Positions 1,427-42,341 of a stretch of 61,520 bases of DNA are shown one piece after another. Origin of the DNA: Actinomycetes bacterium (GTDB lineage: Bacteria; Actinomycetota; Acidimicrobiia; Acidimicrobiales; SZUA-35); NCBI GenBank assembly GCA_024280015.1, contig JAJRQY010000057.1:1-61520 (forward strand), written 5' to 3'. Every line of letters starts with the position of its first letter. Within the stretch, counting starts at the first letter, position 1. Made by a program: the position numbers and the translations under genes. The notes below the pieces were generated by a model that did not search any database, had not been told where the DNA came from, and saw only the letters and a program-made list of their open reading frames with translations.

Positions 1427-3031
1427 TCACGAACGGGAGCGGTTGCTGGCCCTGCTGCCGCTGTCGTCCTTATTGAGACGTTTCGACAGGTGGAGGCCCT
1501 CCAGAATCAGCTCTAGTGCCGAAGCGGCCTCACCGGGCGAAGCATTCGCACCGGCCAGATCCTCAACCGGTTTCTTCAAGGCTGGCAAGGCGTCCAGTAC
1601 CTTGGAATAGTCAGCCGTCAACACGTCGTAACCGGTACTGACTGTTACCTGGGCCTCCGGCTGGCTTGCCTGGGCCTCAGGTTTACCGGCCAGGGCCTCC
1701 GGTGATTCCCCCTGGCCGGAGCTGGCATCATCATCCCGAGCTTTGGACGGATTACCATCCGATGTTGGAGATCCGAACGCGTCGATGACCGACTTCACAC
1801 TCGCCAGTGGCACCAAGTGCTGGAAGGTGGAAAGAATCGCAGACCGCATCAGATGGTCAATGACCTCAGCATCACGACCCTCTTCCAAGGCATCGACCTC
1901 GATCTTGCCTGCCGTCGACGCAATCAAGGCGTCCAGATCACACACTCGAGGCACAATGTCCGTCCCTCCAGAACCACCATCTCCACCATCTCCACCATCT
2001 CCACCAACACCATCGCCGCTCATCAAACAGCGACGAGTGGCGGCGGCAGCCAGCGTCTCCAGGTTGGAGATCGTCAGACGAACCGAAACCCCAGACAGCT
2101 GATTGACATGAGAAGACGCTCGAGCAGCATGAGTTATTGAGGCGATGATTTCCTTCATGAATAACGGGATCACCACGTCATCAGGAATGACCGCCTCCTG
2201 GCCAGCGATAGCGATTTCTGCCTCAGTGTCCAGCGGATAATGGGTGCGGATCTGGGCACCAAAACGATCCTTCAATGGCGTAATCATCCGGCCACGATTG
2301 GTGTAGTCCTCCGGGTTGGCGGTGGCCACCAGCAACACATCAATGGGGAGTCGCACCTTGTAGCCCCGGATCTGGACGTCTCGCTCTTCCAGCACGTTCA
2401 ACAATCCGACCTGGATCCGCTCGGCCAAGTCCGGCAACTCATTGATAGCGAACACCCCCCGATTGGTGCGGGGCACCAGGCCGTAATGAAGGGTCAGCTC
2501 GTCTGATAGGTAACGGCCCTCGGCCACCTTGATTGGGTCAACCTCACCAATCAGATCGGCAATGGACGTATCCGGGGTTGCCAACTTCTCACCGAAGCGC
2601 TCATCCCGGTGAACCCAATCAATGTCGGTCTCATCACCCTTCTCGGCCACCAGATCCCGGGCGTAACGTGAGCCCGGGTTGAACGGATCGTCATTGATTT
2701 CTGAGCCTCGCACGATCGGCATCCACTCATCCAATAATCCGGTGAGCGAGCGGATGATCCTGGTCTTGGCCTGCCCGCGCTCCCCGAGCAGCACGATGTC
2801 ATGCCCGGCAAGCAAGGCATGTTCCAGCTGAGGAAGGACCGTCTCGGAATACCCCTTCACCGCCGGGAAAAGCTCGGTTCCGGCACGAAGTCGTTCAACA
2901 ACATTGGCCCGCAGCTCATCCTTGATCGACCGAGAGGTCCAGTCCGACGCACGCAACTCGCCAATGGTCGCTGGCAGAGACGGCGGCCGAGCTGAGTGGC
3001 CCGAAGATGGCGACGCTGATTGAGGTGTCAT
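1427..3031 (-). CDS. MoxR/ChlI-like AAA+ ATPase
   Basis: Seen: an AAA+ core with a P-loop GERGQAKT (about residues 83-90, Ala in place of the second-last Gly) and a Walker B-like FAINELPDL (about 194-202), followed by a sensor-1-type VATANPEDY segment and an Arg-containing PLKDRFGA. A lid domain follows, then a Gly/Asp linker coded by a 9-bp repeat (about 1976-2002) and a low-complexity Ala/Glu/Pro tail. Known: proteins of this branch resemble magnesium-chelatase subunit I and MoxR chaperone ATPases, which usually work with a VWA-domain partner; none is next to it here. Start at 3031 is chosen because the reading frame further upstream would run through the divergent GH2 gene. The two 5' ends overlap by 2 nt. 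Confidence 0.8.
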   Translation of the reverse strand: MTPQSASPSSGHSARPPSLPATIGELRASDWTSRSIKDELRANVVERLRAGTELFPAVKGYSETVLPQLEHALLAGHDIVLLGERGQAKTRIIRSLTGLLDEWMPIVRGSEINDDPFNPGSRYARDLVAEKGDETDIDWVHRDERFGEKLATPDTSIADLIGEVDPIKVAEGRYLSDELTLHYGLVPRTNRGVFAINELPDLAERIQVGLLNVLEERDVQIRGYKVRLPIDVLLVATANPEDYTNRGRMITPLKDRFGAQIRTHYPLDTEAEIAIAGQEAVIPDDVVIPLFMKEIIASITHAARASSHVNQLSGVSVRLTISNLETLAAAATRRCLMSGDGVGGDGGDGGDGGSGGTDIVPRVCDLDALIASTAGKIEVDALEEGRDAEVIDHLMRSAILSTFQHLVPLASVKSVIDAFGSPTSDGNPSKARDDDASSGQGESPEALAGKPEAQASQPEAQVTVSTGYDVLTADYSKVLDALPALKKPVEDLAGANASPGEAASALELILEGLHLSKRLNKDDSGSRASNRSRS

Positions 3032-25095: not shown

Positions 25096-25767
25096 ATGAG
25101 AATCCTCGTCGTGGAAGACGAACCAAATGTGGCGGCAGCACTGGACTCTGGCCTTACCGCCGAGGGCTTCGGTGTCGATGTTGCCGAGGACGGAAAGACC
25201 GGCCTCTGGATGGCCCGAGAGCACGACTACGCCGTCATCGTGCTCGACGTGATGCTTCCTCAGATGAACGGGTACGTGGTCTGCAAAACCTTACGAGACG
25301 AGGGGAACAGCACGCCGATTCTCATGCTTACCGCTAAGGATGGGGAATACGACCAGGCCGAAGGCCTCGATACCGGAGCTGACGACTATCTGACCAAGCC
25401 GTTTTCATTTGTGGTGCTTACCGCTCATATACGAGCACTCATCCGGCGCGGCAAACCCAAGATCACCAATAGCGGCCAGGTCATCGGGGATATCACCATT
25501 GACGACGATCGCAAAACCTGCACCCGCGGCGGCGTGACCGTCGAACTGACGCCACGCGAGCTGAGCCTGTTGGGAACCCTGGCTTCGGATCCGGGCCGGG
25601 TCTTCACTAAGCAGTACCTCTTGGACCAGGTCTGGGGGCCCGATTTTGATGGGGGTACCAATGTGGTGGAGGTCTACGTTGGCTACCTACGACGCAAGGT
25701 CGACAGGTCAGACCTAGCTCCCCGAATCCAAACGGTCCATGGGCACGGGTATCGGCTGATCCCATGA
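25096..25767 (+). CDS. OmpR-family response regulator
   Basis: Seen: receiver domain with acidic pocket EDE near residues 8-10, phospho-acceptor D51 in VLDVMLP, Thr in MLTAKDG and Lys in TKPF; DNA-binding winged helix from about residue 125 (ELTPRELSLL ... VDRSDLAPRIQTVHGHGYRL). Overlaps the kinase start by 4 nt (ATGA). Its position divergent to the lipoprotein-adaptor-ABC genes suggests it controls them. Confidence 0.93.
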   Translation: MRILVVEDEPNVAAALDSGLTAEGFGVDVAEDGKTGLWMAREHDYAVIVLDVMLPQMNGYVVCKTLRDEGNSTPILMLTAKDGEYDQAEGLDTGADDYLTKPFSFVVLTAHIRALIRRGKPKITNSGQVIGDITIDDDRKTCTRGGVTVELTPRELSLLGTLASDPGRVFTKQYLLDQVWGPDFDGGTNVVEVYVGYLRRKVDRSDLAPRIQTVHGHGYRLIP

Positions 25768-27203
25768 CCTCCGGATCGATCAGGACGCGCCTGTCCATCT
25801 CGATGGCCCTGATCTTTGGGCTGGCGGCGGGGATCGCCGGGACAGTCATGATGCGACAGCTGGAGCGCACCATGCTGGCCAACTCCGAAGAGTCAGCTAA
25901 TGCTTTGCTGAATGACTTCGCCAGTGGCCTACAAACGGGCAGCCCCAACTCGCTTCAGTCTCCGCAAGACAAGGCACGGTTCGTCTACGCCGATGCCAAC
26001 GGGGTTGAGCTCACTCCTGAGGAGTTCGGATTCTTTCTGGTTGGATCTATACCACGTTCTTTGGGCGACGCAGGGATCATGCGCGTCGAACCCGCACCCG
26101 GTGTATCGCCAGACACGGTGACCGAGTTCATCAGAGATATTGACCCCCTTTCGATACCATCAGAAGTCATCACCTTCCAAGAGTTCGCCTTGGACATGGG
26201 TGAGAGAACGACAGAAATAACCCAAGACAGTCTTCGAGTTACTGTCCCGGTATCAATTGCTGATCAGGAACTGAGCCTCGGGGTTATCCAACCTCTGGCC
26301 GAGACTCGCAAGAGCCTGACCGCAGCTACCCGGCTACTCCTCATTGGTATCCCCTTGCTCACCCTCTTTGTGGCCGCGATGGCCTGGGGCGTGGTCGGTC
26401 GGGTATTGAGGCCGGTTTCGGAAATGGCCTCCCGAGTCGAGCAGATCTCAAACGAGAGCCTCGACCAGAGACTCCCCGAGCCCGACTCCACCAACGAATT
26501 AGGTCATCTTGCTCGCACCATGAACGCCATGCTCAAACGCCTGGAGGGGGCCAGAGACTCTCAGCGTCGATTCATTTCTGATGCATCCCACGAGCTACGA
26601 AGCCCGATTACTGCCACCAAGGCAACCATCGAGGTGGCAAGGGCCCACCCGGAATCGACCGACTGGGAACGTACTGCAGAGGTAGTCAGCCAAGAGAACG
26701 ACCGCTTGGCTGGACTGGTTGATGACCTTCTCTTGTTGGCCAATCTGGAGGAGAATCCCAACGGCTTGCGAACCAGTCTCATTGACTTGGACGAGGTTTG
26801 CCTCAATGAAGCCAATCGTCCGCACCCAATCTCGGTTCGGGTCCAAGTTGATCGGCCAGCACGGGTTGAGGCCAATCTTGGCCGTCTGACTCGCGCCTGT
26901 CGCAATATTGTTGAGAATGGCGCTCGGCATGCCACCAGCGAGGTCATCGTTCGGGTCGATGCCGTCGACGGGTTTGGTGTGATCGAGATCTCCGATGATG
27001 GGCCCGGTATTGACCCCAACCTGACAGACCGAGTCTTTGACCGGTTTGCCCGGCTGGATGAGTCCCGCAATCGATCCGAGGGTGGAGGAGCCGGATTGGG
27101 ACTGGCCATTGCCCTCCAGATTGTGGAGACGATCGGAGGGTCCATCACCGTCTCTAACAGCAACGGTGCGGTGTTCACGATCCGGCTCCCCTTGGCTGAC
27201 TGA
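25764..27203 (+). CDS. Sensor histidine kinase
   Basis: Seen: N-terminal helix (ISMALIFGLAAGIAGTVM), an extracytoplasmic sensor of about 160 residues, a second helix near residue 195, a HAMP domain, the H-box SDASHELRSP with His276, N-box CRNIVENGARHA, G1 DDGPGID and G2 GGGAGLGLAIA. Partner of the preceding regulator. The sensor segment has no family I recognise; because the target operon has a wall-binding adaptor, envelope stress or an antimicrobial peptide is a reasonable guess for the signal. Confidence 0.93.
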   Translation: MTSGSIRTRLSISMALIFGLAAGIAGTVMMRQLERTMLANSEESANALLNDFASGLQTGSPNSLQSPQDKARFVYADANGVELTPEEFGFFLVGSIPRSLGDAGIMRVEPAPGVSPDTVTEFIRDIDPLSIPSEVITFQEFALDMGERTTEITQDSLRVTVPVSIADQELSLGVIQPLAETRKSLTAATRLLLIGIPLLTLFVAAMAWGVVGRVLRPVSEMASRVEQISNESLDQRLPEPDSTNELGHLARTMNAMLKRLEGARDSQRRFISDASHELRSPITATKATIEVARAHPESTDWERTAEVVSQENDRLAGLVDDLLLLANLEENPNGLRTSLIDLDEVCLNEANRPHPISVRVQVDRPARVEANLGRLTRACRNIVENGARHATSEVIVRVDAVDGFGVIEISDDGPGIDPNLTDRVFDRFARLDESRNRSEGGGAGLGLAIALQIVETIGGSITVSNSNGAVFTIRLPLAD

Positions 27204-27345: not shown

Positions 27346-30300
27346 ATGTTCAAGTCTCGTATGCGCGCCGTCGTGCACGCACTCATTCTCATCGCTGCCA
27401 CCCTCTCGGCAGTGTTCGTTCCCGTGTCGCCCGCTGGGGCCACCAACGACCTCACCCTGAGTGCCAGTGGTCCAGCCACGGTTCTCATCACCAGTCCGTC
27501 GGCCTTCACCGTAGACCTGACGGCGACCAACCCGGTTGGGGGAAACGGCAACAACGGCTACAACGGCTCATTCCGAGTCGTGCTCCCTGCCGGTGTCAGC
27601 CTGGCCTCGGCCACACCAGCACCTACAGCATCAATTCCCAATGGCGGCGAAACCGTCCTACTGTTCACCAACGTTGGTGATATCCAGGAAGGCTCCACCC
27701 TCGGTCTAAGCCTGAATCTGACCGCCTCGGCCGCCGTACACCCGGTTGGTTCAACGGTCACGATCAACTCCGGCTTCTACGCCAGCGAAGACCCACGCGC
27801 CGTCCCCGACTTCAACGGCCCCGCAAGCACCGCCAGTGGCGACTTCGACGGCTTCGCCACCACCAGCTTCGCCACCACCATCGTCCCTATCGATATCGAG
27901 AAGACTTCTCCCACGGTGGGAGCAGAAAATGAAATGCTCCGTGGCCTGCACGATCAGGTCAATACCTACCACCTGGACGTCACCAATAACGGCGTAGCGA
28001 CCACCGACAACGTCATCGTCCATGACTATGTGCCAGCCAACCTCGAATTCCTGGGTTGCGGAGGTGTCGACAACACCACCGACGCCTCAACCAACCCCGG
28101 CTCATCTCTCGAGTACCCGGGCGCACCTGCGCTCACTGCGACCACCGCCCCGGCCGGACCCTGTCCCGCTCCCGCCCTTGTTGAGATGGTCAGTGTCAGC
28201 TCTGGAGTTATCACCTCCGGGACCGCATCCAACGGCAGCGCAGCACCAACCGGCATGGCTGACGGCGTCTACACCCATGTCCGCTGGGACCTAGCCACCA
28301 TGGCCATCAATCAGCTAACCGAGATCGAGTACCGGGTGGCCATTCCCATCCGTGAGAATGTCTACGTCTCGACCATGAACACTGCCGGAGGAACCGCAGA
28401 CCCAACGGCCAACCTCGACAACAACTCCGGACCTCATACCAACGAGACTGCCAGTGAGAATCAGGCCCGGAACTGGGCGACCGTTGGCGGCACCAGCTAC
28501 ACCGGCCCCGTCGCCTTCCCTGGAGCGGAGAACGCCCAAGACGTCGACGACTTCATTGTGTCGGTAGAAGATCTCTCCATTCACAAGTCTGTGGTCGAGC
28601 CATCACCCGTTCTGCACGGCTCGGTTGCCAACTACACCCTGCTGGTGGAGACCGGCGAGTACCGCACGGTCTCCAACATGACCATTATCGATGTCATGCC
28701 TGATGGCCTTTGCCCCCTACTTGGTGGTGCCGACCCCGAGACCACAGCCCCCATTAGCGGAGACTGTGCCGGTGCTGGACCAGCTCCCAGCCCATCTCTG
28801 ACCTCTCTCACTGAGAACTCCGATGGCACATGGTCCCTCCAGTGGGACTTCAGCACTGTTGGTGCCCTCACCAATCTGAATGCTTCAAGCTCGACCACCC
28901 TGACCTATAGCGCCAAGGTCCGCGAAAGCTATCAAGAAAGCTTCGCCGACGCCGCTCCGGTCAACGGCGCCGACGGCTTCAACAACACCGTGACCATGAA
29001 CGGCTTCAAGAACGTCATTAATGCTGGCCCCCGAAATATCTCTGCGGACAACAACACCGACAATGGTATGCAGATCTTCGACACGTCTTCAGCCGAATTC
29101 GTTGCCGGCACCCCCCAAATTGACAAATCCGTGTCTGTCCCGACTGCAGCCGGTGTCGCCCTCAGTTGCGACTCAGCAACCTGGGTGCGAACCAATCCAG
29201 CTGGTTCGGCCTCACCCGGTTCCCCAGCAACTTTGGTTGGCGCTCCCTATGCCTACCGGCCCGGAGACCGAGTCTGCTACCGCCTGGGAGTAGATCTGGA
29301 AACTGCTCTCAACTATCGCAATACTCGCGTCGACGACTTCATGCCTGCCGGCTACACCTTCGAACAATTCTGGGGAACCACTCCAGGCAATGGAGCCACC
29401 GCATCCAACAACACCGTGATCGACTCAGTCAGCGTTACCGGTGACCTCATCACCTGGAGTCTTGGTGAGATCGATCCCGATACCGCTGGCAGCCCCTTTT
29501 CGTCCGACCTGTTCATCAACAACGGGGCCACCAGGTTTGAGGTGGTCTTCTCCGCCATCGTTGGTTCCCCAACCGGGCGAACGACGCCGGACATTGTGTC
29601 CAACTTGGAGAAATTCACCTCCGCAAATATCAATGGAAGCACCGTGTCGCTGCGCGATGCCGCCGATGTGCAACTGGTTCAACCTCAACTCACGATCACC
29701 AAGGACGACTTTGGTGCTGACGTCGTGAAGGGCGGCGACACTGTCAACCATCGAGTGACCGTCACCAACAACTTCAGCGCTTCATCAGCGTCGTCGTCGG
29801 CCTATGTTGCTGCCTCGGCGACGGCCTACGGTGCCTCGAACTGGGACATCCTCCCCTTCCAGATTTCTTGTTCAGACATCGTTGGTTTCAACGGTGTTGA
29901 ACCCAGTCCAGCCGGAATCACCCTGAACGTCCCCGGAACCGTTGACTATTGCCACAACAGCGTGGCCGCGGTGGGATCGCGCAGCGTTATCGCCTGGACC
30001 ATCACCTCACTGGCTCCCGGCGAGAATGCACAACTGGACTACACCTATACGGTTCCAGCAGGCATCGGGTTCTCAGCCAACCTGCTCAATCTGACTGGTA
30101 TCCGCCAATACGTTGGCGGCGATGCCAACAATGGCGGGGTACCCCAAACGTTTACGCCTGGCACCGGAACGAACAATATCGATCCATCGCTCACCCCAAA
30201 TATTGCCGACGCTCTGGCCAATACCCAGGTTGTGACCCCAGGACTCACGGTTACCAAGGAGCACCAGTCCCAACACGACGACAATGTTGACCAGGCCGTC

Positions 30301-33300
30301 GCTCAAAACTCCAACCTCGCCAATGCCGGTCTCGCAACCACCGACGAAGAAGCCACCATTGGTGAGTTCATCGACTATCGGATCCGTGGAACCATTCCCA
30401 GTGGCGTATCGGTATACAACGCAACCCTTGGCGACACCTTCCCCGCTGGTCTTGAGTATGTCTCACTGACCTCGGCCACCCTGTACCGCTACGCCGGAGA
30501 CCCTGGCATTCCTGCCGTGCCCAATGGGTTTGCGTTAAACCAGGCTGGCCAAACAGTTGAACTGAACTTTCCAGCTACGTACACCGCTGGTGCCAACGAT
30601 GCGCCGGCCAGCGGGCCGGACGAAGATGACATTGTCGAACTCGTTATTCGTCTACGGGTATCGGACATTCCGGCAAATGCGGCCGGATCAACACTCTCCA
30701 ACCGGGCTGATTTTCGGGCGGCAAAGGCTCCTGGTGGCTCACTCATCCTGGCCCAATCAAGCAACCGAACCACCACCGTGGTTGAACCTGCTCCCCAGGT
30801 GACCAAGACCGCCCGTAACAGTGGTGGAACCGTGGTCGGCAACGTAGGCGCCGGTGAGACCATTAGCTACACCATTGTGGTCACCAACCCCAGCACTGCA
30901 GCGCCCGACAATGTTTCCAACGCCTACGACCTTGTTGTCACCGACGTGCTTCCGGCGGGTGTAACCATCTCCGGCGCGGCCAGCGGTGGCGTGTTCACCG
31001 CCGGCGGAGGTGCAACCGAGGGAACCCTGGTTTGGGATGCGGCCACCATACCTGCCTTGTCAGTTCTTGCTCCCGATGCGACCGTCACCATCACCTATGA
31101 CGTGATTGTCGATGACCCGGCGATCTCCGCCAGCCAGTTGACCAATACCGTCTCACTCACCGCCACCAGCCTGTCCGGTACACCAACTGGCGAGCGTACG
31201 ACCTACGCCGACAACGACACTGCCACCCTGACGTTGCCCCTGGCCACCCTGGCCAAGGACGAGTTCCCATTCGGTGGAGCCGACACCCAGACCTATGCCG
31301 TCGGAGACACCGCCGAGTTCCAACTCACGGTTGGCATCCCAGCCGGCACCCGAATCTTCCAGTCCACGATCTTTGACACCCTGCCAGCCGAGGTAGATTT
31401 CGATAGCTACGGAACAATCACCATCAACAACTGTCAGCTCATTTCCAATGCTGGCCTTCCCGGTGAGTCTCTGGCCCCTCTGACGACCGGTGACATCGTG
31501 AACCTGACACCAAACGGTCAGATCCTTGGCTGGTTCGTGGGTGATGTTGAAGCTCGAGACGCTGGCGGTATCCCGGCGGATTGTACGATCACCGCCGAGT
31601 ACCAGGTACACGTGAACTCAACCGCCATTACCACAGACACGCCGGCAAACCAGGCCATCCTGGCGTGGGAAAACGCCCCCGTTGGTGGGGCAACCCCAGC
31701 CGCGGTCAGCGATCTTCCTGCACCACCGACCGATGGGAACTCTGGAACCTGGGACGGCAAGACTCCCCAGGTTGCCGATGACATCGATATTCTCGAGCCG
31801 GCCCTAGCTGTCGACAAAGACGTCACCCTCAGCGGTGGAGCAACCCTGCTCAATCCCACCTGTGATACAACACCAGGCAACAACACCGCCGGATCAAACG
31901 ATCTTGATGGCACACCAGCCAACGGCTGTGACATCGAGGCCGGAGCCCGGTTGACCTACTCGGTCGTCGTTTCCAACTCCGGAGACGGTGCAGCCCATGA
32001 CATCACCATGGTCAACAATGTCCCAACCGGATTGACCCCAATCGATACCGCCACCGGTAGCCCAGTGGCCAATGGTGCCAATGTCGTTGGAACTGTTCCT
32101 GCCTTCCCTGGGGTCTGGGACTCGGCTGCCCGAACCATCACCTGGACCCTGTCCACCATCGCCGCGGCCGGGAATCTCACCCTTGACTACGACGTCATCC
32201 TCGACCCGTCCAACGGCCTCACCGACGGGCAAGACCTGTCCAACTCCATCGATATCCCGACCTACTTCGGCTTACCCTCAGCAACCAGAACCCTCCTGGT
32301 CACCAACAACCCAGCCAACAATGACATCCCAACCTATGGCGACAGCGGAACCCGCGGTCCGGTAGAGGGCGATGTCGTTACCGTCGAGGTGCACTTCCCC
32401 GACCTGGCCGTGGTCAAGACCCACGTAGCCCCCAGCGATGACACCGACGCTCGCCTGGACCAGCCCTTCAACTGGCTCCTCACCATCACGAACAACGACG
32501 AGACAGCCACCGCCTTCAACCTTGACGTTGTCGATGCCCTGCCAACGGGTTGGACCTATGTTCCCAACTCCGCCGTCGTCACCTTTGCTGGCACTCCCAC
32601 CAGCATCGAACCGGCCTGCACGGTTGCCAGTGGCGCCTGCAACACCCCGGCCGATAACAATTCCGAAGGACTGTTCTGGACTGATGTACGAGCCGCTCTG
32701 GCCCCGGGTGAGAGCTTCACCATTGCCCTGCAGGCCATTCCCCAGTCGGCGGCCCTCACTCCCGATGCTGCCACCGGCATCGCCAACACCGGTTGGGATA
32801 CTGGCGCTGGAAACGCCCACGTGAATAGTGTGATCGTGTCTGGCGACGATGCCTCCGGTTCAAGTTCGTGTTGTGATCCAGACGGGGCAGGTCCTGGTTT
32901 CCCAGTCCTCTATGAGGCTTCTACGAGTGACACCGTCTATATCCGTCGGGCTGACCTTGAGGTGGCCAAGTCGGTGACTCCGGTAGATGCCGACGGCAAC
33001 CCGGCTAACGGGCCCCATTGGTTCGGCTCCTTCATCGAGTACACCATCTCCATCACCAACCAGGGCCCAGATACGGCTCTTGACGTGGTGGTAGAAGATG
33101 CCTTGGACCGATCAGCGTTGATCTACTCCAGCGTCACGTCCATTGACCAGGGAACCTTCACCCAAACCGGGGGCTCCGGTGCCCAATGGGGTGAGTGGAA
33201 CGTTGGCAGTATCCCATCTGGAACCACCCTCAACCTGGTTGTGCGAATGCAAATCGGTGCCCTGGGCGCAATCGACAACCTGGCAGAGGTCACCGAGACC

Positions 33301-36300
33301 TCCACCTACGACCCCGATTCCGACCCGGACAACTCGGTGTTTGAACCAGGCGAAGACGACACTGATTCGGTTCAGATCACCTCAGTTCCAACCATGTTGG
33401 GCGACCGAGTCTGGCTCGATACCAATGGTGACGGACTCCAGGCCGGTGAGAGCGGCATTCCTGACGTCACCGTCACTGTCACCTACAACGATCCAATCAC
33501 CGGGGCGGCTGTGACCAGCAGCACCATCACAGACCTGCTCGGCAACTACGGCTTCACCAACCTGCCAAGCAATGTGCCGATCACGGTCGCCATTGACTAC
33601 GGCAACACAGTCCTCAACCCCAACCTTGCTGGACTCGACCCCAGCTACGACCTGGACGGCGGACTCAATCAGAGTGCCATAGCCACCATCGATCCGGCAT
33701 CAGATCCGACAGGGTCAGGTACACCCGGCCGCTTGGACGTCGACTTCGGATTCACTGATTCCGCTGGTGCTGGTCAGTCTTTGGGTAACCGTGTCTGGTG
33801 GGACCAGAACAATTCTGCCGATGCCAGCGACGGTTCGGGCGAATTTGGCCTCCCCGCCGTGACCGTCACCGCCCTATGGGCTGGCTTCGACGGAATCTTC
33901 GGCAACGCCGACGATCAGACCTACACCACCGACACCGATGCCACCGGAACCTACCTGTTCGACACCATCCCTCCCGGGGAGTACCAGGTCTCAGTCGACA
34001 ACAGCGACATCCCTCTCGGTTTGCGCATCCCGACCTTTGATCAGGATGGGGTCGCAACTCCCAACACTGTCAACAGCATCACCATTCTCCCCAACGAGAA
34101 CCAGCTGGACGTCGACTTCTCTTACCGGGGCAACGGCTCCATTGGCGACAGGGTCTGGTATGACCTGGACGGCGACGGAATCCAAGATGCCGACGAGTTC
34201 GGTATTGCCGGAGCCACGGTCACTCTCATCTGGACCGATCCAGTTAGTGGCCAGACCGCCACCCTGACCACCACCACAGGGGCCGACGGCACCTACCTGT
34301 TCGAGAACCTTCCCTTCGGCGACTATGTGGTTACCGTTGACCCGGCGACGCTGCCGGCCGGCCTGGTTCAAACCTTTGATGCTGATGGCCTTGGCTCACC
34401 ACTGCAATCCAGCCTGTCATTGAGCGTTGGTAACAACACCAACCTTGACCAGGACTTCGGCTTTCGCGGAACTGGTTCCATCGGCGACACTGTCTGGTTC
34501 GATGCCGACAACAGCGCTGATGCGAATCTGGCCGGAAGTGGAGTCTTCGCCGCTGGAGACACTGCCATTGTCGGCGTCGATGTCAGCCTGACATGGGCCG
34601 GACCGGACAATACCTTTGGTACCGCCGATGACTATGTCTACACCGCGGCCGCCTACGGCACGACCACCGATGCCAACGGAGAATACCTCTTCGGGAACCT
34701 TCCCTTCGGTGACTACCGAGTCCTCGTTGATGATTCCATGCTTCCTGCAGGCCAGGACGAAGCAACCTTCGATGACGATGGCATCGCCAGTCCCAACCAA
34801 TCCGAGACCACTATTTCCGTGGCAACTCCGGACGATCTGGATCAGGATTTCTCCTACACCGGTTCGAGTGAGCTGGGTAACTTCGTCTGGATTGACGAGA
34901 ACGGCAACGGAATCCAGGACGCGGGGGAAGCCCCCGTCTCTGGACTCACCGTCACCCTGTACAAGATCAACCCAGTCGACCTGGCCAATCCAGTTCTCTT
35001 GAGGACCATGGACACCCTGGCCGACGGCAGCTACTTGTTCGACAACCTCGATGCTGGTGACTATGTCGTCGTCTTTGATCAGCTGGCCAACCATGTTCCA
35101 ACGGGAACAACAGCCGGCAGCAATACTGCCGTCGACTCCAATGGTCGGGTCATCAATAACCCAACAAGCCCCTTCGACACCATGTTGGCGACTCCGACAA
35201 TCAGCTTGGGCGCTGGAACCTCAGATCTAACTTGGGATCAGGGTTTCTATCAACCCGCCGAACTCGGCGACATTGTATGGCTGGACAGCAATGTCAATGG
35301 TGTCCAGGATGGGGCCGAAACCGGAGTCTCTGGGGTGACTGTCAATCTGATGGACGAGGCAGGCAAGCCAATCATTGGCGCTGGCGGCAACCCCGTCACC
35401 ACCACAACTGGAGCCGACGGAAGCTACCTGTTCACCAATCTGGTTCCCGGTGTCTACACCGTCCAGTTCGTGGCCCCGCCAAGCCATGTCTTCACCCTGG
35501 TTGACCAGGGTGGCAATGATGGCGTCGACAGTGACGCTGGTTTGAGTAGTAGCCCAACACCAGGTCTCACCGGGCCAATCACCCTGACCTCGGGTGATTC
35601 GAACCTGACCGTTGATGCTGGCATCTTCGACGATGCGGTCATCGGCGACAAGATCTGGGAAGACTATGACCAGGACGGGATCCAGGACACAAATGAGCCA
35701 GGGATCAGTGGGATCACCGTGACCCTGGAGGCGCCCGGCTTGGATGGCATCTTCGGTAACGCCGATGATGTTCTGGTGGCGACCACCACCACATCGGCCA
35801 CCGGCAACTACCTCTTCACCGAGCTGGTTCCTGGTGAATACCGAGTACGGATCAATCCGACAACGCTCCCAACCGACATGGTCATCACCAGCCAGAACGC
35901 TGGAACCGACGATGCCATCGATAGTGATGCGGATACAACGAGCGGGTACTTGGCTTCGGTCACATTAGCCATGGGTGACGAAGATCTCAGTCATGACGCT
36001 GGGGTGTACGTTCCCTATGATCTGACCATTGCCAAGACGGTCTCGGCCACCTCGGCTGCCCAAGGCGCCGTTGTCAACTACAGCATCACCGTCAGTAATG
36101 TTGGACCCGGCGATGTTCACGAAGTCGTCACCGTGCGAGACCCCTTGCCTGCTGGTTTGAGCTTTGTATCGGTGTCTACTCCGACCGGTTGGACCTGTAG
36201 CCAAGCCAACAATGTCGTTACCTGCTTGTCTGGGTCGACGATCCCAGCCAATACCAAGGCCACCATCTCGATCAAGGCACTGATTACGGCCAAGAATGGC

Positions 36301-36552
36301 GTCAGCATCCTCAACACGGTTCAGATGGAAACGGTTTCCACCATTGGCATCGATGGGCCGAACGACATCGAAACCGGTTCCGCACCAATTTTGCGGATCA
36401 ATGACAGCCTGGCTCGAACCGGCAATGACTCCCAGTGGCTGGTTACTGGTGGCCTTCTTCTTGTCGGCATGGGTGGGTTACTCCTCCTGCTGACTGGCAT
36501 GAAACGAGCGGCTATTCCGGTTCTTGTTTCCAGGCGTCGCGAAGATCAGTAA
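27346..36552 (+). CDS. Giant cell-wall-anchored surface protein (DUF11 and SdrD-B-like repeats, LARTG)
   Basis: 3068 residues in one uninterrupted frame. Seen: signal peptide ending near AGA (about residue 32); about ten DUF11-like beta domains starting near residues 182, 407, 589, 780, 964, 1147, 1299, 1485, 1685 and 1868 (pattern KxV...GxxxxYTIxVxNxG...V.D.LP); seven SdrD-B/Cna-B-like units near 2017, 2146, 2265, 2379, 2509, 2639 and 2765, each opening G(D/N)xVWxDxxxDGIQ with EF-hand-like Asp loops; a last DUF11 near 2891; then LARTG (3022-3026), a hydrophobic helix and a KR/RRR tail. Known: LAXTG is used by class E sortases of Actinobacteria. I infer a rigid, Ca2+-stabilised stalk or adhesin. 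The start has GAAGG 6 nt upstream. Confidence 0.9.
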   Translation: MFKSRMRAVVHALILIAATLSAVFVPVSPAGATNDLTLSASGPATVLITSPSAFTVDLTATNPVGGNGNNGYNGSFRVVLPAGVSLASATPAPTASIPNGGETVLLFTNVGDIQEGSTLGLSLNLTASAAVHPVGSTVTINSGFYASEDPRAVPDFNGPASTASGDFDGFATTSFATTIVPIDIEKTSPTVGAENEMLRGLHDQVNTYHLDVTNNGVATTDNVIVHDYVPANLEFLGCGGVDNTTDASTNPGSSLEYPGAPALTATTAPAGPCPAPALVEMVSVSSGVITSGTASNGSAAPTGMADGVYTHVRWDLATMAINQLTEIEYRVAIPIRENVYVSTMNTAGGTADPTANLDNNSGPHTNETASENQARNWATVGGTSYTGPVAFPGAENAQDVDDFIVSVEDLSIHKSVVEPSPVLHGSVANYTLLVETGEYRTVSNMTIIDVMPDGLCPLLGGADPETTAPISGDCAGAGPAPSPSLTSLTENSDGTWSLQWDFSTVGALTNLNASSSTTLTYSAKVRESYQESFADAAPVNGADGFNNTVTMNGFKNVINAGPRNISADNNTDNGMQIFDTSSAEFVAGTPQIDKSVSVPTAAGVALSCDSATWVRTNPAGSASPGSPATLVGAPYAYRPGDRVCYRLGVDLETALNYRNTRVDDFMPAGYTFEQFWGTTPGNGATASNNTVIDSVSVTGDLITWSLGEIDPDTAGSPFSSDLFINNGATRFEVVFSAIVGSPTGRTTPDIVSNLEKFTSANINGSTVSLRDAADVQLVQPQLTITKDDFGADVVKGGDTVNHRVTVTNNFSASSASSSAYVAASATAYGASNWDILPFQISCSDIVGFNGVEPSPAGITLNVPGTVDYCHNSVAAVGSRSVIAWTITSLAPGENAQLDYTYTVPAGIGFSANLLNLTGIRQYVGGDANNGGVPQTFTPGTGTNNIDPSLTPNIADALANTQVVTPGLTVTKEHQSQHDDNVDQAVAQNSNLANAGLATTDEEATIGEFIDYRIRGTIPSGVSVYNATLGDTFPAGLEYVSLTSATLYRYAGDPGIPAVPNGFALNQAGQTVELNFPATYTAGANDAPASGPDEDDIVELVIRLRVSDIPANAAGSTLSNRADFRAAKAPGGSLILAQSSNRTTTVVEPAPQVTKTARNSGGTVVGNVGAGETISYTIVVTNPSTAAPDNVSNAYDLVVTDVLPAGVTISGAASGGVFTAGGGATEGTLVWDAATIPALSVLAPDATVTITYDVIVDDPAISASQLTNTVSLTATSLSGTPTGERTTYADNDTATLTLPLATLAKDEFPFGGADTQTYAVGDTAEFQLTVGIPAGTRIFQSTIFDTLPAEVDFDSYGTITINNCQLISNAGLPGESLAPLTTGDIVNLTPNGQILGWFVGDVEARDAGGIPADCTITAEYQVHVNSTAITTDTPANQAILAWENAPVGGATPAAVSDLPAPPTDGNSGTWDGKTPQVADDIDILEPALAVDKDVTLSGGATLLNPTCDTTPGNNTAGSNDLDGTPANGCDIEAGARLTYSVVVSNSGDGAAHDITMVNNVPTGLTPIDTATGSPVANGANVVGTVPAFPGVWDSAARTITWTLSTIAAAGNLTLDYDVILDPSNGLTDGQDLSNSIDIPTYFGLPSATRTLLVTNNPANNDIPTYGDSGTRGPVEGDVVTVEVHFPDLAVVKTHVAPSDDTDARLDQPFNWLLTITNNDETATAFNLDVVDALPTGWTYVPNSAVVTFAGTPTSIEPACTVASGACNTPADNNSEGLFWTDVRAALAPGESFTIALQAIPQSAALTPDAATGIANTGWDTGAGNAHVNSVIVSGDDASGSSSCCDPDGAGPGFPVLYEASTSDTVYIRRADLEVAKSVTPVDADGNPANGPHWFGSFIEYTISITNQGPDTALDVVVEDALDRSALIYSSVTSIDQGTFTQTGGSGAQWGEWNVGSIPSGTTLNLVVRMQIGALGAIDNLAEVTETSTYDPDSDPDNSVFEPGEDDTDSVQITSVPTMLGDRVWLDTNGDGLQAGESGIPDVTVTVTYNDPITGAAVTSSTITDLLGNYGFTNLPSNVPITVAIDYGNTVLNPNLAGLDPSYDLDGGLNQSAIATIDPASDPTGSGTPGRLDVDFGFTDSAGAGQSLGNRVWWDQNNSADASDGSGEFGLPAVTVTALWAGFDGIFGNADDQTYTTDTDATGTYLFDTIPPGEYQVSVDNSDIPLGLRIPTFDQDGVATPNTVNSITILPNENQLDVDFSYRGNGSIGDRVWYDLDGDGIQDADEFGIAGATVTLIWTDPVSGQTATLTTTTGADGTYLFENLPFGDYVVTVDPATLPAGLVQTFDADGLGSPLQSSLSLSVGNNTNLDQDFGFRGTGSIGDTVWFDADNSADANLAGSGVFAAGDTAIVGVDVSLTWAGPDNTFGTADDYVYTAAAYGTTTDANGEYLFGNLPFGDYRVLVDDSMLPAGQDEATFDDDGIASPNQSETTISVATPDDLDQDFSYTGSSELGNFVWIDENGNGIQDAGEAPVSGLTVTLYKINPVDLANPVLLRTMDTLADGSYLFDNLDAGDYVVVFDQLANHVPTGTTAGSNTAVDSNGRVINNPTSPFDTMLATPTISLGAGTSDLTWDQGFYQPAELGDIVWLDSNVNGVQDGAETGVSGVTVNLMDEAGKPIIGAGGNPVTTTTGADGSYLFTNLVPGVYTVQFVAPPSHVFTLVDQGGNDGVDSDAGLSSSPTPGLTGPITLTSGDSNLTVDAGIFDDAVIGDKIWEDYDQDGIQDTNEPGISGITVTLEAPGLDGIFGNADDVLVATTTTSATGNYLFTELVPGEYRVRINPTTLPTDMVITSQNAGTDDAIDSDADTTSGYLASVTLAMGDEDLSHDAGVYVPYDLTIAKTVSATSAAQGAVVNYSITVSNVGPGDVHEVVTVRDPLPAGLSFVSVSTPTGWTCSQANNVVTCLSGSTIPANTKATISIKALITAKNGVSILNTVQMETVSTIGIDGPNDIETGSAPILRINDSLARTGNDSQWLVTGGLLLVGMGGLLLLLTGMKRAAIPVLVSRRREDQ

Positions 36553-38565: not shown

Positions 38566-38610
38566 CCAGACCTACCTAGTCCAAACCTACCCAGTCCAGG
38601 CTTACTCAGT
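38566..38610. repeat. Three 15-bp tandem repeats between convergent genes
   Basis: Units of the form CCAxxCxTACxxAGT at 38566-38580, 38581-38595 and 38596-38610, reaching 5 nt into the 3' end of the permease gene (stop at 38606-38608). Looks like a tandem duplication around the stop codon region. Confidence 0.7.
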
Positions 38611-39532
38611 CCAGGCCGCGTAGGAACGGTTTGGCCAAGGCCGCAGGCGGGCGAACTCGGTGGGCGAAGGCAGCCATTCCGACAATGGTGACGATGTAGG
38701 GAAGAGCCGTGAGGAACTCGGTATTGATCCCGTCATATCCCTGATCAGGAAGGGACAGGCGGAACGAAACAACTGCACCGAACAAGAGGCAGCCAGCCAC
38801 CGAGCCCTTCAGGGTCCAGCCACCGAAGATGACCGCAGCAATGGCGATGAAGCCGCGACCGCCGACAATGGAATCGGCAAATGCACCGACCGCTCCAAAG
38901 ACGAGGTAGGCCCCTCCTAGTCCGGAAGTGAGACCGGTCAGATAGATGGTTTGGCGGCGGCGTTTGTTGACGCGGATACCCGACACATCGGCCGAATTTG
39001 GATCTTCACCCGAAGCCCGGACTTCCAGCCCCCAACGGGTTCGGTACACCAGCCACCAGACGGCTGGCACCAAGGGGTAGACCAGGTAGAGCGGCCAAGG
39101 CTGATCGAAAAGGGCAGGACCGATGACGGGGATCGAGGCCAGTCCGGGAATAGTGGCCTGGCTGGCCTTGTCAACCGAGGGCTCGATCACATTGTCTAGG
39201 AAGCCAACCAGCCCGAGGATCAAGATATTGATGGTGAGGCCAACCACGAACTGGTCAGCGGGAAGGCGATGGCTCAAATTGGCCTGGATGGTCGAAACCA
39301 GAAAACCACAAAATGCTCCCATCAGTATCGCCAACGGGATTGACCCAGTGATGTCATAGCTAACGGCGGAGCCAAAAGCCCCAGCCAAGATCATGCCTTC
39401 GACCGAGATATTCAGGGTTCCCGCTCGTTCGGCCACCCATTCCCCGCTGGCAGCGAAGAGCAACAAGACAGCGAAGCGCATTGCGCTGGAATACGTCACC
39501 TCATTGCCAATAATGTCCCAGATAGCGCCCAT
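38606..39532 (-). CDS. ABC importer permease (BMP/nucleoside-type), second subunit
   Basis: Seen: about eight to nine hydrophobic helices and the family motifs ERAGTLNISVEGMILAGAFG and YRTRWGLEVRASGEDPNSADVSGI. Known: this is the BPD_transp_2 family, like YufQ/NupQ of nucleoside importers. Last gene of the 11-gene minus-strand unit; the start shares one base with the stop of the first permease. It forms the channel with the preceding subunit. Confidence 0.88.
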   Translation of the reverse strand: MGAIWDIIGNEVTYSSAMRFAVLLLFAASGEWVAERAGTLNISVEGMILAGAFGSAVSYDITGSIPLAILMGAFCGFLVSTIQANLSHRLPADQFVVGLTINILILGLVGFLDNVIEPSVDKASQATIPGLASIPVIGPALFDQPWPLYLVYPLVPAVWWLVYRTRWGLEVRASGEDPNSADVSGIRVNKRRRQTIYLTGLTSGLGGAYLVFGAVGAFADSIVGGRGFIAIAAVIFGGWTLKGSVAGCLLFGAVVSFRLSLPDQGYDGINTEFLTALPYIVTIVGMAAFAHRVRPPAALAKPFLRGLD

Positions 39533-40695
39533 CAGATTCGTTCCTTTGACGCGTTCAGGGCTCGACGCCGTTGGCGGATGTACAACACCGCAGGAGGGAT
39601 CAGCAGGGCCAGCACGAGAAGGGCTTGCACCACTCCGGTGATCTTGCGCTCAACACCAGTAGCGGCTAAGAACCCTGATCCCGTGCGAAGGGCAGCAAAC
39701 AAGAAGGCCACCAGGACAGCGGCACTGGCTTTTTCTCGGGCCACCAGGGCAACGAGCAAGCCAGTCCATCCGATTGAGACCGAGAACCCGGGTACCAGCT
39801 GATAGTTACCAAAGTCACCGCCAGCCAGCATGATGCCACCGGCCAGCCCGGCGAAAGCACCAGATAGGGCCATGGCTGCCATCCCGTAGCGGGTGGAGTC
39901 AACCCCGGCCCGTTGGGCCGTCTTGGCATTCTGGCCCAACATCCGCAACCGGAACCCAGGGACCGTCCTGCTCAAGGCAAACGTGACGACAACCGCCAGA
40001 GCAATGGCAAGCAAGACCGTTAGTGGAAACTCGTTCCCGAACACTGTGATTCGTTTTACCCGGACCGCATCAGCCAGTTGCTCACTGACCTGGTTCCGGT
40101 TGGACCGACCTTCGGCGGGAGCCAAGAGAAGCCAGTCTTTCTTCAGTCCATAGCCAACCGCATTGGCGGCAATAGTAACCATGAGTAAGGTGCTGAGGAC
40201 CTCAGGAACCCCTCGCCAGAATCGCAGGGCTCCAGCAATAGCAGCCCACAAGGCACCCCCAAGTCCGCCGGCAAGAAGCAAGGTTAGAAGCACAGCAAAA
40301 CCAGCAACGGAGCCGGTTGTTTCACCGCCGAGGCGGGTGCCAACGAAGGCGGCAAAAGCCGCGCCGATGAGAAGCTGCCCTTCCTGGCCAATGTTCACCA
40401 AACCGGCCTTGGAGTTGATGATGGTGCCAAGGGCAACCAGCAGCATCGGGGCGGCAGAACCAAGGGTCAGACCCCAACGACCGGGGCGCAGAATACTGCC
40501 ATCCAGCAGGGCACTGAAGACATCACGAGCCGATCCTCCAGTTAGCGAAACCAGCAACCCCGACAGGAACAGAGCAACCAGAACGGACAGGGCGTAGAGG
40601 GTGACGATCTCACCCAGAACAAGGTGCCGGCCCCGCGCGGCGGCAACCTCTTTTGCCGCCCCATCAATTGGATCGCTGCCAAGCACGTCGGTCAT
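39532..40695 (-). CDS. ABC importer permease (BMP/nucleoside-type), first subunit
   Basis: Seen: a cytoplasmic N-terminus of about 30 residues, about eight helices, NSKAGLVNIGQEGQLLIGA (family motif parallel to that in the second permease) and a coupling-loop motif GFRLRMLGQNAKTAQRAGVD. Known: YufP/NupP-like partner in importers for purine nucleosides and related molecules. Overlaps the ATPase stop by 4 nt. Confidence 0.88.
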   Translation of the reverse strand: MTDVLGSDPIDGAAKEVAAARGRHLVLGEIVTLYALSVLVALFLSGLLVSLTGGSARDVFSALLDGSILRPGRWGLTLGSAAPMLLVALGTIINSKAGLVNIGQEGQLLIGAAFAAFVGTRLGGETTGSVAGFAVLLTLLLAGGLGGALWAAIAGALRFWRGVPEVLSTLLMVTIAANAVGYGLKKDWLLLAPAEGRSNRNQVSEQLADAVRVKRITVFGNEFPLTVLLAIALAVVVTFALSRTVPGFRLRMLGQNAKTAQRAGVDSTRYGMAAMALSGAFAGLAGGIMLAGGDFGNYQLVPGFSVSIGWTGLLVALVAREKASAAVLVAFLFAALRTGSGFLAATGVERKITGVVQALLVLALLIPPAVLYIRQRRRALNASKERI

Positions 40696-42341
40696 GGGAC
40701 CGCTCCGCCCATCATCAAGCCGAGTCGTTCGATGTCAACGGCTTCACGGGACATCTCACCGACGATACGCCCCTTGCTCAGCACAACCAGCCTGCTAGCC
40801 AGATCAAGAATTTCGTCCAACTCGGTGGAGATCAACAAGACTGCGACCCCAGCGGCTGCCGCCTGTCGAAGCTGCTCGGACATGTATTCGATGGCACCAA
40901 CATCAAGGCCTCTGGTTGGTTGGGCTGCCACCAATACTCGAGGATGATGTGCCATCTCCCGAGCCAGCACCACTCGTTGTTGGTTGCCGCCCGACAGCGA
41001 CCACATTGGAGCATCTGGCCCCTCACAACTGATGGCAAACCGCTCAATCAACCGCTCCGCCCGGTAGGTCATTTTGCGGTGGTCAAGGATCCCGCGCCGA
41101 GCTACCAGATTCGGATCGGCCAGGAAGAGATTTTCGGCAACACTCATTTCCAGTACACAGCCCGAGTCATGCCGATCCTCGGGGATGACCGAAATCCCGG
41201 CCTTGGCCATGGCCCCAGCACGACCGCAGGCAATTGGCTTGCCATCGACGCGTACTGAGCCACTGGCTAGAGACATCAGGCTAGAAAGCAGGTCAGCCAG
41301 TGGTCGCTGTCCATTGCCTTCCACCCCAGCCAAGCCCACGATTTCGCCTCGATAGACCTTCAGGTCAAGGCCATCCAGCAGTACCCGACCATCGTCGCCG
41401 TTCGCGTGGACTGAATCAATCTCCAGTGACGCATGTTCTTGCTTGGGCTTTGTTGGCCGCCGTTTCGGCGAGTCAGTTTCACTACTTGGGACCTCTCGCT
41501 CCGAGCGCAGAGCGACCGGCCGGCCGACCATGGCCCGGGCCAGGCCAGCAGCATCACTGTCGCTGGTCTTCTGGTGGGCAACCACCTTGCCGCGCCGCAT
41601 GATGGTGACCAGGTCAGTTGCCCCAAGAATCTCATCCAACTTGTGGCTGACAAGGGCAATGGCCATCCCCTCGTCTTCGACTGCTCGTCGCAAGCCTTCG
41701 AACAAGATCTCGGACTCACCGGGACTAAGCACACTGGTTGGCTCGTCCAAGATCACCGTCCTTGGGCTGCGGCGCAAACACTTGATGATCTCGACCCGTT
41801 GACGCAGGCCAGCCGTCAGGGTTCCAACCACGGCATTTGGTTCGATGTCTAGCCCATAGTGGCGACTGAGGTCACCGATCTCATCTCGAATGGCTTCGGG
41901 GTTAAGGCGCATCTGGTCGCCTAGGGCAACGTTCTCCCAAACGGTGAGGGCATTGACCACACTGAAGTGCTGATGCACCATGCCAATGCCTTTTTCCGCG
42001 GCATCGATGGGATCGGTGATCACCGACGGTTTCCCGTCGATGATCACCTGCCCCGCGTCGGGAACGACCAGCCCAATAAGGATCTTCATCAGGGTTGACT
42101 TGCCTGCACCATTTTCTCCGAGCACACCGTGAATCTGGCCTCGGTGAAATACAAGATCAACCGAGTCACAGGCGGAGACTTGGCCATACCTCTTGGTTAT
42201 GCCGACAACTTCAACGGCGGGAGGGTCATCTCGCCATTGATTCGTTGTCAGTATTGAGCCCTCCGTTGATCCAACAGTCGGACCGGCGTTTGACGTTGCC
42301 GATCCGGATGGCGCTCCTGATGCTGTCCCTGGCTCAACCAC
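40692..42341 (-). CDS. ABC importer ATPase with two fused nucleotide-binding domains
   Basis: Seen: first NBD with Walker A GENGAGKST near residues 75-83, signature LTAGLRQRVEI and Walker B VILDEPTSVL; second NBD with GVEGNGQRPL in place of Walker A (Lys missing), signature LSGGNQQRVVLARE and VLVAAQPTRGLD. Known: sugar and nucleoside (RbsA/YufO-type) importers have such double ATPases with a degenerate second P-loop. A Gly/Ser/Thr-rich N-terminal extension of about 35 residues precedes the first NBD. The GTG start shares one base with the BMP gene stop. Confidence 0.92.
   Translation of the reverse strand: MVEPGTASGAPSGSATSNAGPTVGSTEGSILTTNQWRDDPPAVEVVGITKRYGQVSACDSVDLVFHRGQIHGVLGENGAGKSTLMKILIGLVVPDAGQVIIDGKPSVITDPIDAAEKGIGMVHQHFSVVNALTVWENVALGDQMRLNPEAIRDEIGDLSRHYGLDIEPNAVVGTLTAGLRQRVEIIKCLRRSPRTVILDEPTSVLSPGESEILFEGLRRAVEDEGMAIALVSHKLDEILGATDLVTIMRRGKVVAHQKTSDSDAAGLARAMVGRPVALRSEREVPSSETDSPKRRPTKPKQEHASLEIDSVHANGDDGRVLLDGLDLKVYRGEIVGLAGVEGNGQRPLADLLSSLMSLASGSVRVDGKPIACGRAGAMAKAGISVIPEDRHDSGCVLEMSVAENLFLADPNLVARRGILDHRKMTYRAERLIERFAISCEGPDAPMWSLSGGNQQRVVLAREMAHHPRVLVAAQPTRGLDVGAIEYMSEQLRQAAAAGVAVLLISTELDEILDLASRLVVLSKGRIVGEMSREAVDIERLGLMMGGAVP

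What the first reader, a model, noticed from the sequence alone, without database searches (positions are those of the whole stretch)
27346..36552. 3068-residue stalk protein ending in the LAXTG-type signal LARTG
About 15% of the window is one surface protein with some eleven DUF11-like and seven SdrD-B-like domains, Asp-rich loops for calcium, and a class E sortase-type signal. The domain order (all DUF11 first, then B-type repeats, then one last DUF11) suggests a two-part stalk. No sortase gene is in the window.
Basis: partly seen in the sequence, partly recalled or inferred. Interest (0 to 1): 0.6.

Follow-up and report, generated by a model that had tools for sequence, protein, structure and literature searches.

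The report
Giant cross-linked wall-anchored surface protein
A very long bacterial surface protein, probably fixed to the cell wall by the genome's only known sortase, is built from a ten-domain front part that keeps the same order in distant actinobacteria, which is unexpected for proteins of this kind.

Summary
ORF 27346-36552 (+) encodes 3068 residues: export signal, eleven DUF11-like domains (D0-D10), seven SdrD_B domains, a last DUF11 (D11), then LARTG, hydrophobic helix, basic tail. The genome (Acidimicrobiales) has one detected sortase, on another contig; class E is its best model, 6.7 bits under the cut-off. Lys-Asp-Asn isopeptide triads are complete in 10 of 12 domains. AlphaFold of D0-D2 (pLDDT 92) resembles isopeptide pilins. 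New: D0-D9 are not interchangeable repeats. Position-specific models meet them in the same order in 56 of 56 held-out homologs (38 with all ten, 15 with an extra domain inserted) and in none of 13 control proteins. Of 64 homologs with complete ends, 44 carry a sortase signal; ten, in Thermoleophilia, end in [VFL]-T-G-stop, and eight of these adjoin an L,D-transpeptidase gene, against 0 of 44; five of the ten genomes also have a sortase. The parts are known kinds; the fixed array and change of anchor were not found in our paper searches. Adhesion is inferred.

The parts
27346..27441 (+). Export signal (residues 1-32), read by eye
   Evidence: Basic start, hydrophobic core, AGA at the end; no signal-peptide predictor was on hand
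27442..27885 (+). D0, DUF11-like beta-sandwich without a triad (Ala40 where 35 of 83 rows have Lys, Val78 where 46 of 83 have Asp)
   Evidence: 9ifr Z 10.8, rmsd 2.9, 114 aligned, tied with other Ig-like folds
27886..28560 (+). D1; triad Lys186-Asp227-Asn376, Cys238/Cys273
   Evidence: triad complete in 71 of 83 rows
28561..29109 (+). D2, triad Lys414-Asp449-Asn547, Cys456/Cys474
   Evidence: complete in 81 of 83 rows; model matches isopeptide pilins
29110..29682 (+). D3, triad Lys594-Asp664-Asn753, Cys608/Cys644
   Evidence: complete in 78 of 83 rows
29683..30234 (+). D4, triad Lys786-Asp834-Asn915, Cys842/Cys869
   Evidence: complete in 73 of 83 rows; cysteines
30235..30786 (+). D5, triad Lys971-Asp1030-Asn1119
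   Evidence: complete in 74 of 83 rows
30787..31236 (+). D6, triad Lys1154-Asp1200-Asn1267; NCBIfam TIGR04226 isopeptide-forming fimbrial domain
   Evidence: complete in 77 of 83 rows
31237..31797 (+). D7, triad Lys1304-Asp1344-Asn1435, Cys1363/Cys1413
   Evidence: complete in 75 of 83 rows
31798..32397 (+). D8, Lys1491 and Asn1633 present but Asn1557 where 73 of 78 rows have Asp; Cys1506/Cys1528
   Evidence: the sister species L061 keeps K-D-N
32398..32949 (+). D9, triad Lys1691-Asp1730-Asn1827, Cys1758/1765/1842/1843
   Evidence: complete in 63 of 83 rows; model
32950..33381 (+). D10, triad Lys1875-Asp1918-Asn1978; generic DUF11 type
   Evidence: complete in 45 of 83 rows, many truncated or gapped there
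33382..36015 (+). Seven SdrD_B domains (residues 2013-2890), Asp-rich Ca-type loops: the variable stalk
   Evidence: Pfam 7 stretches; SdrD 10ps_A E 5.4e-27
36016..36378 (+). D11, last DUF11 domain, triad Lys2897-Asp2932-Asn2990, Cys2951/Cys2960
36409..36549 (+). Sortase signal LARTG, hydrophobic helix, basic tail
   Evidence: 18.7 bits, cut-off 15.9; of seven orthologs in relatives with a complete end, six end in LAxTG and one (L071) in LPQSG

Best explanation
A sortase-anchored giant surface protein of the fibrillar-adhesin kind. Shown here by computation: eleven DUF11/CLIPPER-type beta-sandwich domains, ten of them (D0-D9) in an order kept over distant lineages; then seven SdrD_B domains, one wall-proximal DUF11 domain and a LAXTG signal; one class E-like sortase found in the genome; Lys-Asp-Asn triads complete in ten domains; cysteines that fall in pairs within domains. 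Inferred: the sortase cleaves LARTG and links the protein to peptidoglycan; the triads close into isopeptide bonds and the cysteines into disulfides, making a stiff, protease-resistant rod; calcium stiffens the SdrD_B stalk; the stalk lifts D0-D9 off the wall, where the conserved D0-D3 end meets a partner or a surface (adhesion or cell-cell contact).
For: ORF and domains. Sortase signal. The single sortase P0002 scores best with class E (153.3 bits; class D models at most 72.8), has His171, Cys241, Arg248/250 and a Tyr154 that also stands in the aligned sortases 5uus and 5go5. Further tails of this kind in the same genome (LAYTG, LAVTG, LAFTG, LPVTG) suggest a substrate set for it. Triads complete in 45 to 81 of 83 rows by domain; 11 of 25 lysines sit in the triad position. 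AlphaFold D0-D2 pLDDT 92.2, pTM 0.88; D2 matches CppA, EbpB, BcpA, SpaD pilins at Z 10.9-11.8. D9-D10-B1-B2 folds with pLDDT 88. DUF11 was solved with its bond as 9IFR (PMC12617251, passages). Order test.
Against: P0002 is 6.7 bits under the curated class E cut-off. No known adhesive domain was found, so adhesion rests on analogy. No coordinates were available, so triad geometry was not measured. VKOR was not found in the genome (other oxidases not searched), so disulfides are unproven. D0 and D8 lack a complete triad. D0 fits cohesin, integrin and macroglobulin domains as well as 9ifr, so its fold alone does not mark it as DUF11. Neighbouring genes give no help: of seven window neighbours, only the two-component pair recurs convincingly, once, 6-7.5 kb from one homolog (L147).
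Confidence: 0.78

Rival explanations
1. Plain membrane anchor: the C-terminal helix stays in the membrane and LARTG is never cut.
For: The sortase lies on another contig and is just under the class E cut-off.
Against: A sortase-type pentapeptide is kept in 44 of 64 named homologs with complete ends, where a mere membrane anchor would not need it; sortases are in 93 of 99 relatives and in 11 of 11 genomes tested whose giant has such a signal.
Confidence: 0.1
2. The protein does not adhere: the D0-D9 array is a structural coat or spacer (S-layer-like or steric shield).
For: No known adhesive domain; even the outermost domain D0 is an Ig-like sandwich; the order of the array is kept over distant lineages while adhesins are said to evolve quickly (PMC9210967, abstract in the listing).
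Against: Patchy: 10 of 396 genomes sampled over the phylum, the window's own included, have a match to D1-D2 at E 1e-12, which suits an optional surface tool more than a coat.
Confidence: 0.3
3. A sortase-polymerised pilus shaft.
For: D2 resembles pilin domains; TIGR04226 is named for a pilin.
Against: Only one sortase found in the genome and class C fits it poorly (55.4 bits, cut-off 160); pilus shafts are made of small repeated subunits (recalled).
Confidence: 0.03

Closest known systems
CLIPPER (DUF11, PF01345) fibrillar adhesins, PMC12617251 (passages seen)
   Same: DUF11 domains in tandem in long exported surface proteins with a C-terminal sorting signal; Lys-Asp-Asn triad
   Different: There DUF11 is described as often tandemly repeated stalk domains; here ten positions are individually conserved in one order over distant lineages
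S. aureus SdrD B region (PF17210; 10ps_A, 4jdz)
   Same: Seven SdrD_B domains with Asp-rich Ca-type loops; E 5.4e-27 to 10ps_A
   Different: Only the B region was matched; here it sits between DUF11 domains
Class E sortase substrates with LAXTG, e.g. chaplins (PMC5148588, passages seen)
   Same: LAXTG signal and a class E-like sortase in an actinobacterium
   Different: Chaplins promote aerial hyphae; this is a giant multidomain protein, and its sortase is just under the curated class E cut-off
Isopeptide pilins (PDB 5xcb, 9m00, 3kpt, 4hss)
   Same: Fold of D2 (Z 10.9-11.8)
   Different: No sortase over the class C cut-off in this genome; not a small subunit

Membership tests
Sortase-anchored protein of the LAXTG (class E) kind | LAXTG + hydrophobic helix + basic tail at the C-terminus | tested here: met
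   LARTG 3022-3026, RRRE tail; 18.7 bits, cut-off 15.9
Sortase-anchored protein of the LAXTG (class E) kind | N-terminal export signal | tested here: inconclusive
   Clear by eye, no predictor run
Sortase-anchored protein of the LAXTG (class E) kind | Covalent link to peptidoglycan by the sortase | not testable with these tools
   needs wall proteomics
Class E sortase (P0002) | Catalytic His, Cys, Arg and the Tyr held to read Ala in LAXTG | tested here: met
   His171, Cys241, Arg248/250; Tyr154 aligned with Tyr in 5uus and 5go5; its equation with SrtE1 Tyr229 is inference, the SrtE1 alignment was not printed
Class E sortase (P0002) | Score over the curated NCBIfam cut-off | tested here: not met
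   NF033747 153.3 bits, cut-off 160; hence 'class E-like'
CLIPPER/DUF11 isopeptide domains | Lys-Asp-Asn triad | tested here: met
   Complete in 10 of 12 domains; not in D0 and D8
CLIPPER/DUF11 isopeptide domains | CnaA-like beta-sandwich | tested here: met
   D2: 5xcb Z 11.8, rmsd 3.0, 129 aligned; D0: 9ifr Z 10.8 but tied with other Ig-like folds; other domains not searched
CLIPPER/DUF11 isopeptide domains | Bond formed | not testable with these tools
   no coordinates were returned; needs mass spectrometry or a crystal
SdrD_B | Family score over cut-off | tested here: met
   427.9 bits, cut-off 29.7, seven stretches
SdrD_B | Calcium bound | not testable with these tools
   Asp-rich loops canonical in 5 of 7 by eye
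Fibrillar adhesin | Adhesive domain at the end far from the wall | tested here: inconclusive
   No known adhesive domain; D0 is Ig-like; whether stalk domains can bind is left open in PMC9210967 (passage)
Sortase-assembled pilin | Class C sortase in the genome | tested here: not met
   One sortase found; class C model 55.4 bits against cut-off 160; the draft is 96.6% complete

The most novel reading that the evidence does not exclude
One ancient surface protein, defined by a ten-domain covalently locked array in fixed order, exists in widely separated actinobacteria and has changed its wall-anchoring system: sortase signals (LAXTG/LPXTG) in Acidimicrobiia and Actinomycetia, but in a Thermoleophilia group no sortase signal or membrane helix, a new C-terminal tag [VFL]-T-G-COOH shared with other DUF11 proteins, and an adjoining L,D-transpeptidase that links it to peptidoglycan. 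The array part is tested here; the anchoring part rests on gene adjacency alone.
Probability: 0.25. Interest if true: 0.75.

Novelty: new variant of a known kind. Interest (0 to 1): 0.5.

Why it matters
Stalks of surface adhesins are usually thought of as repeats that expand, shrink and shuffle. Here ten DUF11-like domains keep individual identities and order over great distances, so the array probably does something beyond spacing. It gives a defined set of triad-bearing domains, two of them natural near-misses in this species (D0, and D8 with Asp to Asn, intact in its sister species), for studying why isopeptide bonds are kept or lost. The Thermoleophilia homologs pose a directly testable question: is a giant surface protein anchored by an L,D-transpeptidase where others use a sortase, and what reads a [VFL]TG carboxyl end?

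Tried and rejected
Overlapping-gene explanation of the TG ends: I first took '-VTG stop' for a coupled start codon of the downstream gene; the DNA shows TAG stops in eight of eleven loci printed and differing codons for the last three residues, so the conservation is at the protein level.

Braun-lipoprotein-like Lys anchor for the Thermoleophilia homologs: five of ten have no Lys in the last 40 residues, so that version is not supported.

GVTG-stop as a class-wide signal: of the 30 loci given for a 199-genome sample of the class, the script's motif counted 0 DUF11 ends and I read one (L264) as such; 0 of 30 in the Acidimicrobiales control. So the tag is a trait of part of the class, and the six genomes were picked because they hold the giant.

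Loss of sortase as the cause of the anchor change: five of the ten genomes with [VFL]TG giants do have a sortase.

Conserved neighbours of the window gene: of seven neighbours compared with the flanks of the named and relatives' loci, only generic ABC and kinase matches and one convincing two-component pair (L147, 6-7.5 kb away) came up.

phmmer of D10 against the PDB gave no pilin or DUF11 chain, mostly antibody chains, none better than E 0.066; the fold search was needed. Foldseek's top rows are integrin alpha chains with TM about 0.2, a shared arrangement of beta-sandwiches and no evidence of kinship. VKOR search: nothing. First genome-contig scan with the single protein found no relative; the alignment was needed.

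Literature, listings only unless said: Acidimicrobi* + sortase, Solirubrobacter + transpeptidase (no paper), five anchoring terms (no paper), YkuD + sortase + actinobacteria + adhesin (one paper, on secretomes), DUF11 searches, class E sortase + LAXTG. No title or abstract start there describes this array or the anchor change; most of those papers were not opened (PMC11573180 on huge proteins names DUF11 and was not read). 'Not found in print' means these searches only.

Full report
What is there. The + strand ORF 27346-36552 is open for 3068 codons. Pfam gives SdrD_B at 427.9 bits with seven stretches and DUF11 at 206.8 bits; NCBIfam adds the DUF11-type repeat TIGR01451 and the isopeptide-forming fimbrial domain TIGR04226. 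Aligned with homologs, the protein reads: export signal 1-32; D0 (33-180), D1 (181-405), D2 (406-588), D3 (589-779), D4 (780-963), D5 (964-1147), D6 (1148-1297), D7 (1298-1484), D8 (1485-1684), D9 (1685-1868), D10 (1869-2012), all DUF11-like; seven SdrD_B domains (2013-2890); D11 (2891-3011), DUF11; then LARTG, a hydrophobic helix and RRREDQ. Domain limits are mine, set by the triads and the alignment.

Where it comes from. The window is contig C87 of a 4.80 Mb draft genome, 96.6% complete. A relative marked 'same order' (G232) is one contig of 4,830,181 bases, the length given for Ilumatobacter coccineum YM16-304 (PMC3910706, passages), so I take the order to be Acidimicrobiales; named Acidimicrobiales records among the homologs agree. 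The nearest named homolog is the bin record JAJRXF010000026.1, 79% identical. PMC3910706 already reports 13 LPXTG proteins in the Ilumatobacter strain.

Anchor. One sortase was found in the genome, on contig C56. Its best model is class E, 153.3 bits against a cut-off of 160; a class D model follows at 72.8. It has His171, Cys241, Arg248/250 and Tyr154; the Tyr is shared by aligned sortases 5uus and 5go5, and S. coelicolor SrtE1 is among the hits (E 9.9e-15). PMC5148588 (passages) ties a conserved Tyr in class E to reading Ala in LAXTG. Other proteins of the genome end in LAYTG (1813 aa), LAVTG (1478 aa), LAFTG (167 aa) and LPVTG (112 and 350 aa). Sortases occur in 93 of 99 relatives.

Covalent locks. 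PMC12617251 (passages) reports the isopeptide of DUF11 as Lys-Asp-Asn and renames the domain CLIPPER; it adds that some DUF11 domains lack the bond. In the window protein the triad is complete in D1-D7, D9, D10 and D11. D0 has neither Lys nor Asp at the places where 35 and 46 of 83 rows have them; D8 has Asn1557 where 73 of 78 rows have Asp, and the sister species has K-D-N. Of 25 lysines in the whole protein, 11 occupy the triad position; thirteen other window proteins have 2.3% Lys, this one 0.81%. Over 83 aligned rows the complete triad is kept in 81 (D2), 78 (D3), 77 (D6), 75 (D7), 74 (D5), 73 (D4), 73 (D8), 71 (D1), 63 (D9), 45 (D10), gaps and truncated rows counting as misses. The 18 cysteines fall in pairs within domains, mostly conserved; VKOR was not found.

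Fold. AlphaFold2 of D0-D2 with 60 aligned rows: mean pLDDT 92.2, pTM 0.88. VIA-align puts D2 on pilins CppA, EbpB, BcpA and SpaD (Z 10.9-11.8) and D0 on the CLIPPER structure 9ifr (Z 10.8, rmsd 2.9, 114 aligned), but D0 fits cohesin (Z 11.7) and integrin domains (Z 12.3) as well, so its fold is only Ig-like in general. No known adhesive domain was seen. D9-D10-B1-B2 fold as mainly-beta domains (pLDDT 88.0, pTM 0.75). Coordinates were not returned, so Lys-Asn distances were not measured.

A fixed array. Of 99 relatives, own genome included, 37 have a match at E 1e-10; 16 of the others have a listed match that starts in the D0-D10 part, the rest mostly match the SdrD_B part. A scan of species genomes with the ortholog alignment confirmed 144 of 174 candidate stretches and kept 79 loci, from Acidimicrobiia, Thermoleophilia and Actinomycetia such as Nocardioides, Arthrobacter, Cryobacterium and Cellulomonas. 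Each window domain D0-D3 finds its own counterpart as best match in 80 of 80, 81 of 81, 81 of 81 and 81 of 81 homologs; the share is lower further on: D4 73 of 81, D5 68 of 80, D6 62 of 79, D7 69 of 77, D8 48 of 77, D9 63 of 76, D10 46 of 75. That alignment was global, so I repeated the test without it: models of each position, trained on 27 rows, scanned 56 held-out proteins. The first appearances of positions 0-9 are in increasing order in 56 of 56; all ten are found in 38, the rest being truncated or short of some; in 45 each appears at most once; in 15 an extra generic domain is inserted before D9; in two (L123, L149) the D8 slot reads as D6, in one (L096) D9 is doubled, and the others have stray hits further on. 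Thirteen control DUF11 or SdrD_B proteins or fragments gave none of positions 0-9; two more relatives scanned alongside (L045, L047) proved to be members and gave the order again. The scan patterns lie in D1, so the sampled proteins have D1 by construction. What follows D9 varies: 1 to 9 hits of the D10 model in the 39 held-out proteins with complete end and a D9 (this model also catches other repeats, the window protein itself scoring four), and 0 to 15 SdrD_B-type motifs in 61 proteins (a rough motif, nine for the window's seven). In a sample of 396 genomes of the phylum, 10 have a match: conserved in form but patchy in occurrence.

Anchors differ. Of 77 distinct named homologs, 13 run off their contig; of 64 with an end, 25 have LAxTG, 13 LPxTG, 6 a variant, 10 end in [VFL]TG-stop with no helix, 10 end otherwise, some of them evidently frame-broken. 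The ten are Thermoleophilia by title or by falling in one class with Conexibacter arvalis. In seven an L,D-transpeptidase (YkuD) gene starts at the giant's end, in one (L157) it lies directly upstream; two (L096, L130) have none; none of 44 sortase-signal loci has one within 1 kb (Fisher p 4e-8, not corrected for kinship or lineage). The search there was by motif, and stray motif matches in L090 (antisense to the giant), L114, L135 and L138 were judged spurious. All eight enzymes are over the Pfam cut-off. Of seven new loci with an end in a later draw, the four ending in TG (L195, L198, L206, L207) have the enzyme and the three with other ends (L199, L217, L221) do not; the refetched L130 (L222) again has none. 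The ten differ by 24 to 65% in D1-D3. Sortase genes are in 11 of 11 genomes with sortase-signal giants and in 5 of 13 genomes of the signal-less group, among them 5 of the 10 with TG ends, so lack of a sortase does not explain the change. A DNA pattern for G-V-T-G-TAG in six such genomes gave 12 matches (reversed control 2), all 12 the ends of DUF11 proteins, seven of them not the giant. In the wider class I read this in 1 of 30 loci. Adjacency does not prove that the enzyme anchors the protein, and no conserved Lys near the end offers itself as acceptor.

Verdict. The window gene is a genuine giant sortase-type surface protein of known building blocks. New are the fixed ten-domain array and, outside the window, the change of C-terminal anchor. 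The searches listed under Tried and rejected found neither in print.

Noticed in passing
L091, L094, L100, L107, L120, L122, L127, L157 (and L195, L198, L206, L207): Homologs without sortase signal end in [VFL]-T-G-stop and adjoin an L,D-transpeptidase (YkuD) gene.
   Followed up: partly
L224, L226, L227, L229, L230, L231, L234: Seven other DUF11 proteins of the same genomes also end in GVTG-stop; L230 too has a YkuD-type motif downstream.
   Followed up: partly
L001:1171-2271 (-): The class E-like sortase has a hydrophobic C-terminal extension of about 55 residues well after the catalytic domain, perhaps one or two more membrane helices (by eye).
   Followed up: no
L072:4706-10147, L073:4346-8782, L074:5774-6277, L075:4456-4794, L078:3884-4936: Further proteins of the window genome with LAXTG or LPVTG tails, two of them (L072, L073) with SdrD_B domains.
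   Followed up: partly
L124, L135, L140: Salinibacterium loci carry two giant homologs in one stretch.
   Followed up: no
L068: The homolog in relative G037 is interrupted by an in-frame TGA.
   Followed up: no
window 25096-27203: A two-component system ends about 140 bases upstream of the giant, same strand; a similar pair lies 6-7.5 kb from one homolog, L147.
   Followed up: partly
window 38606-42341 (-): ABC transporter genes nearest to the 'putative B6' transporter models but well under their cut-offs.
   Followed up: no
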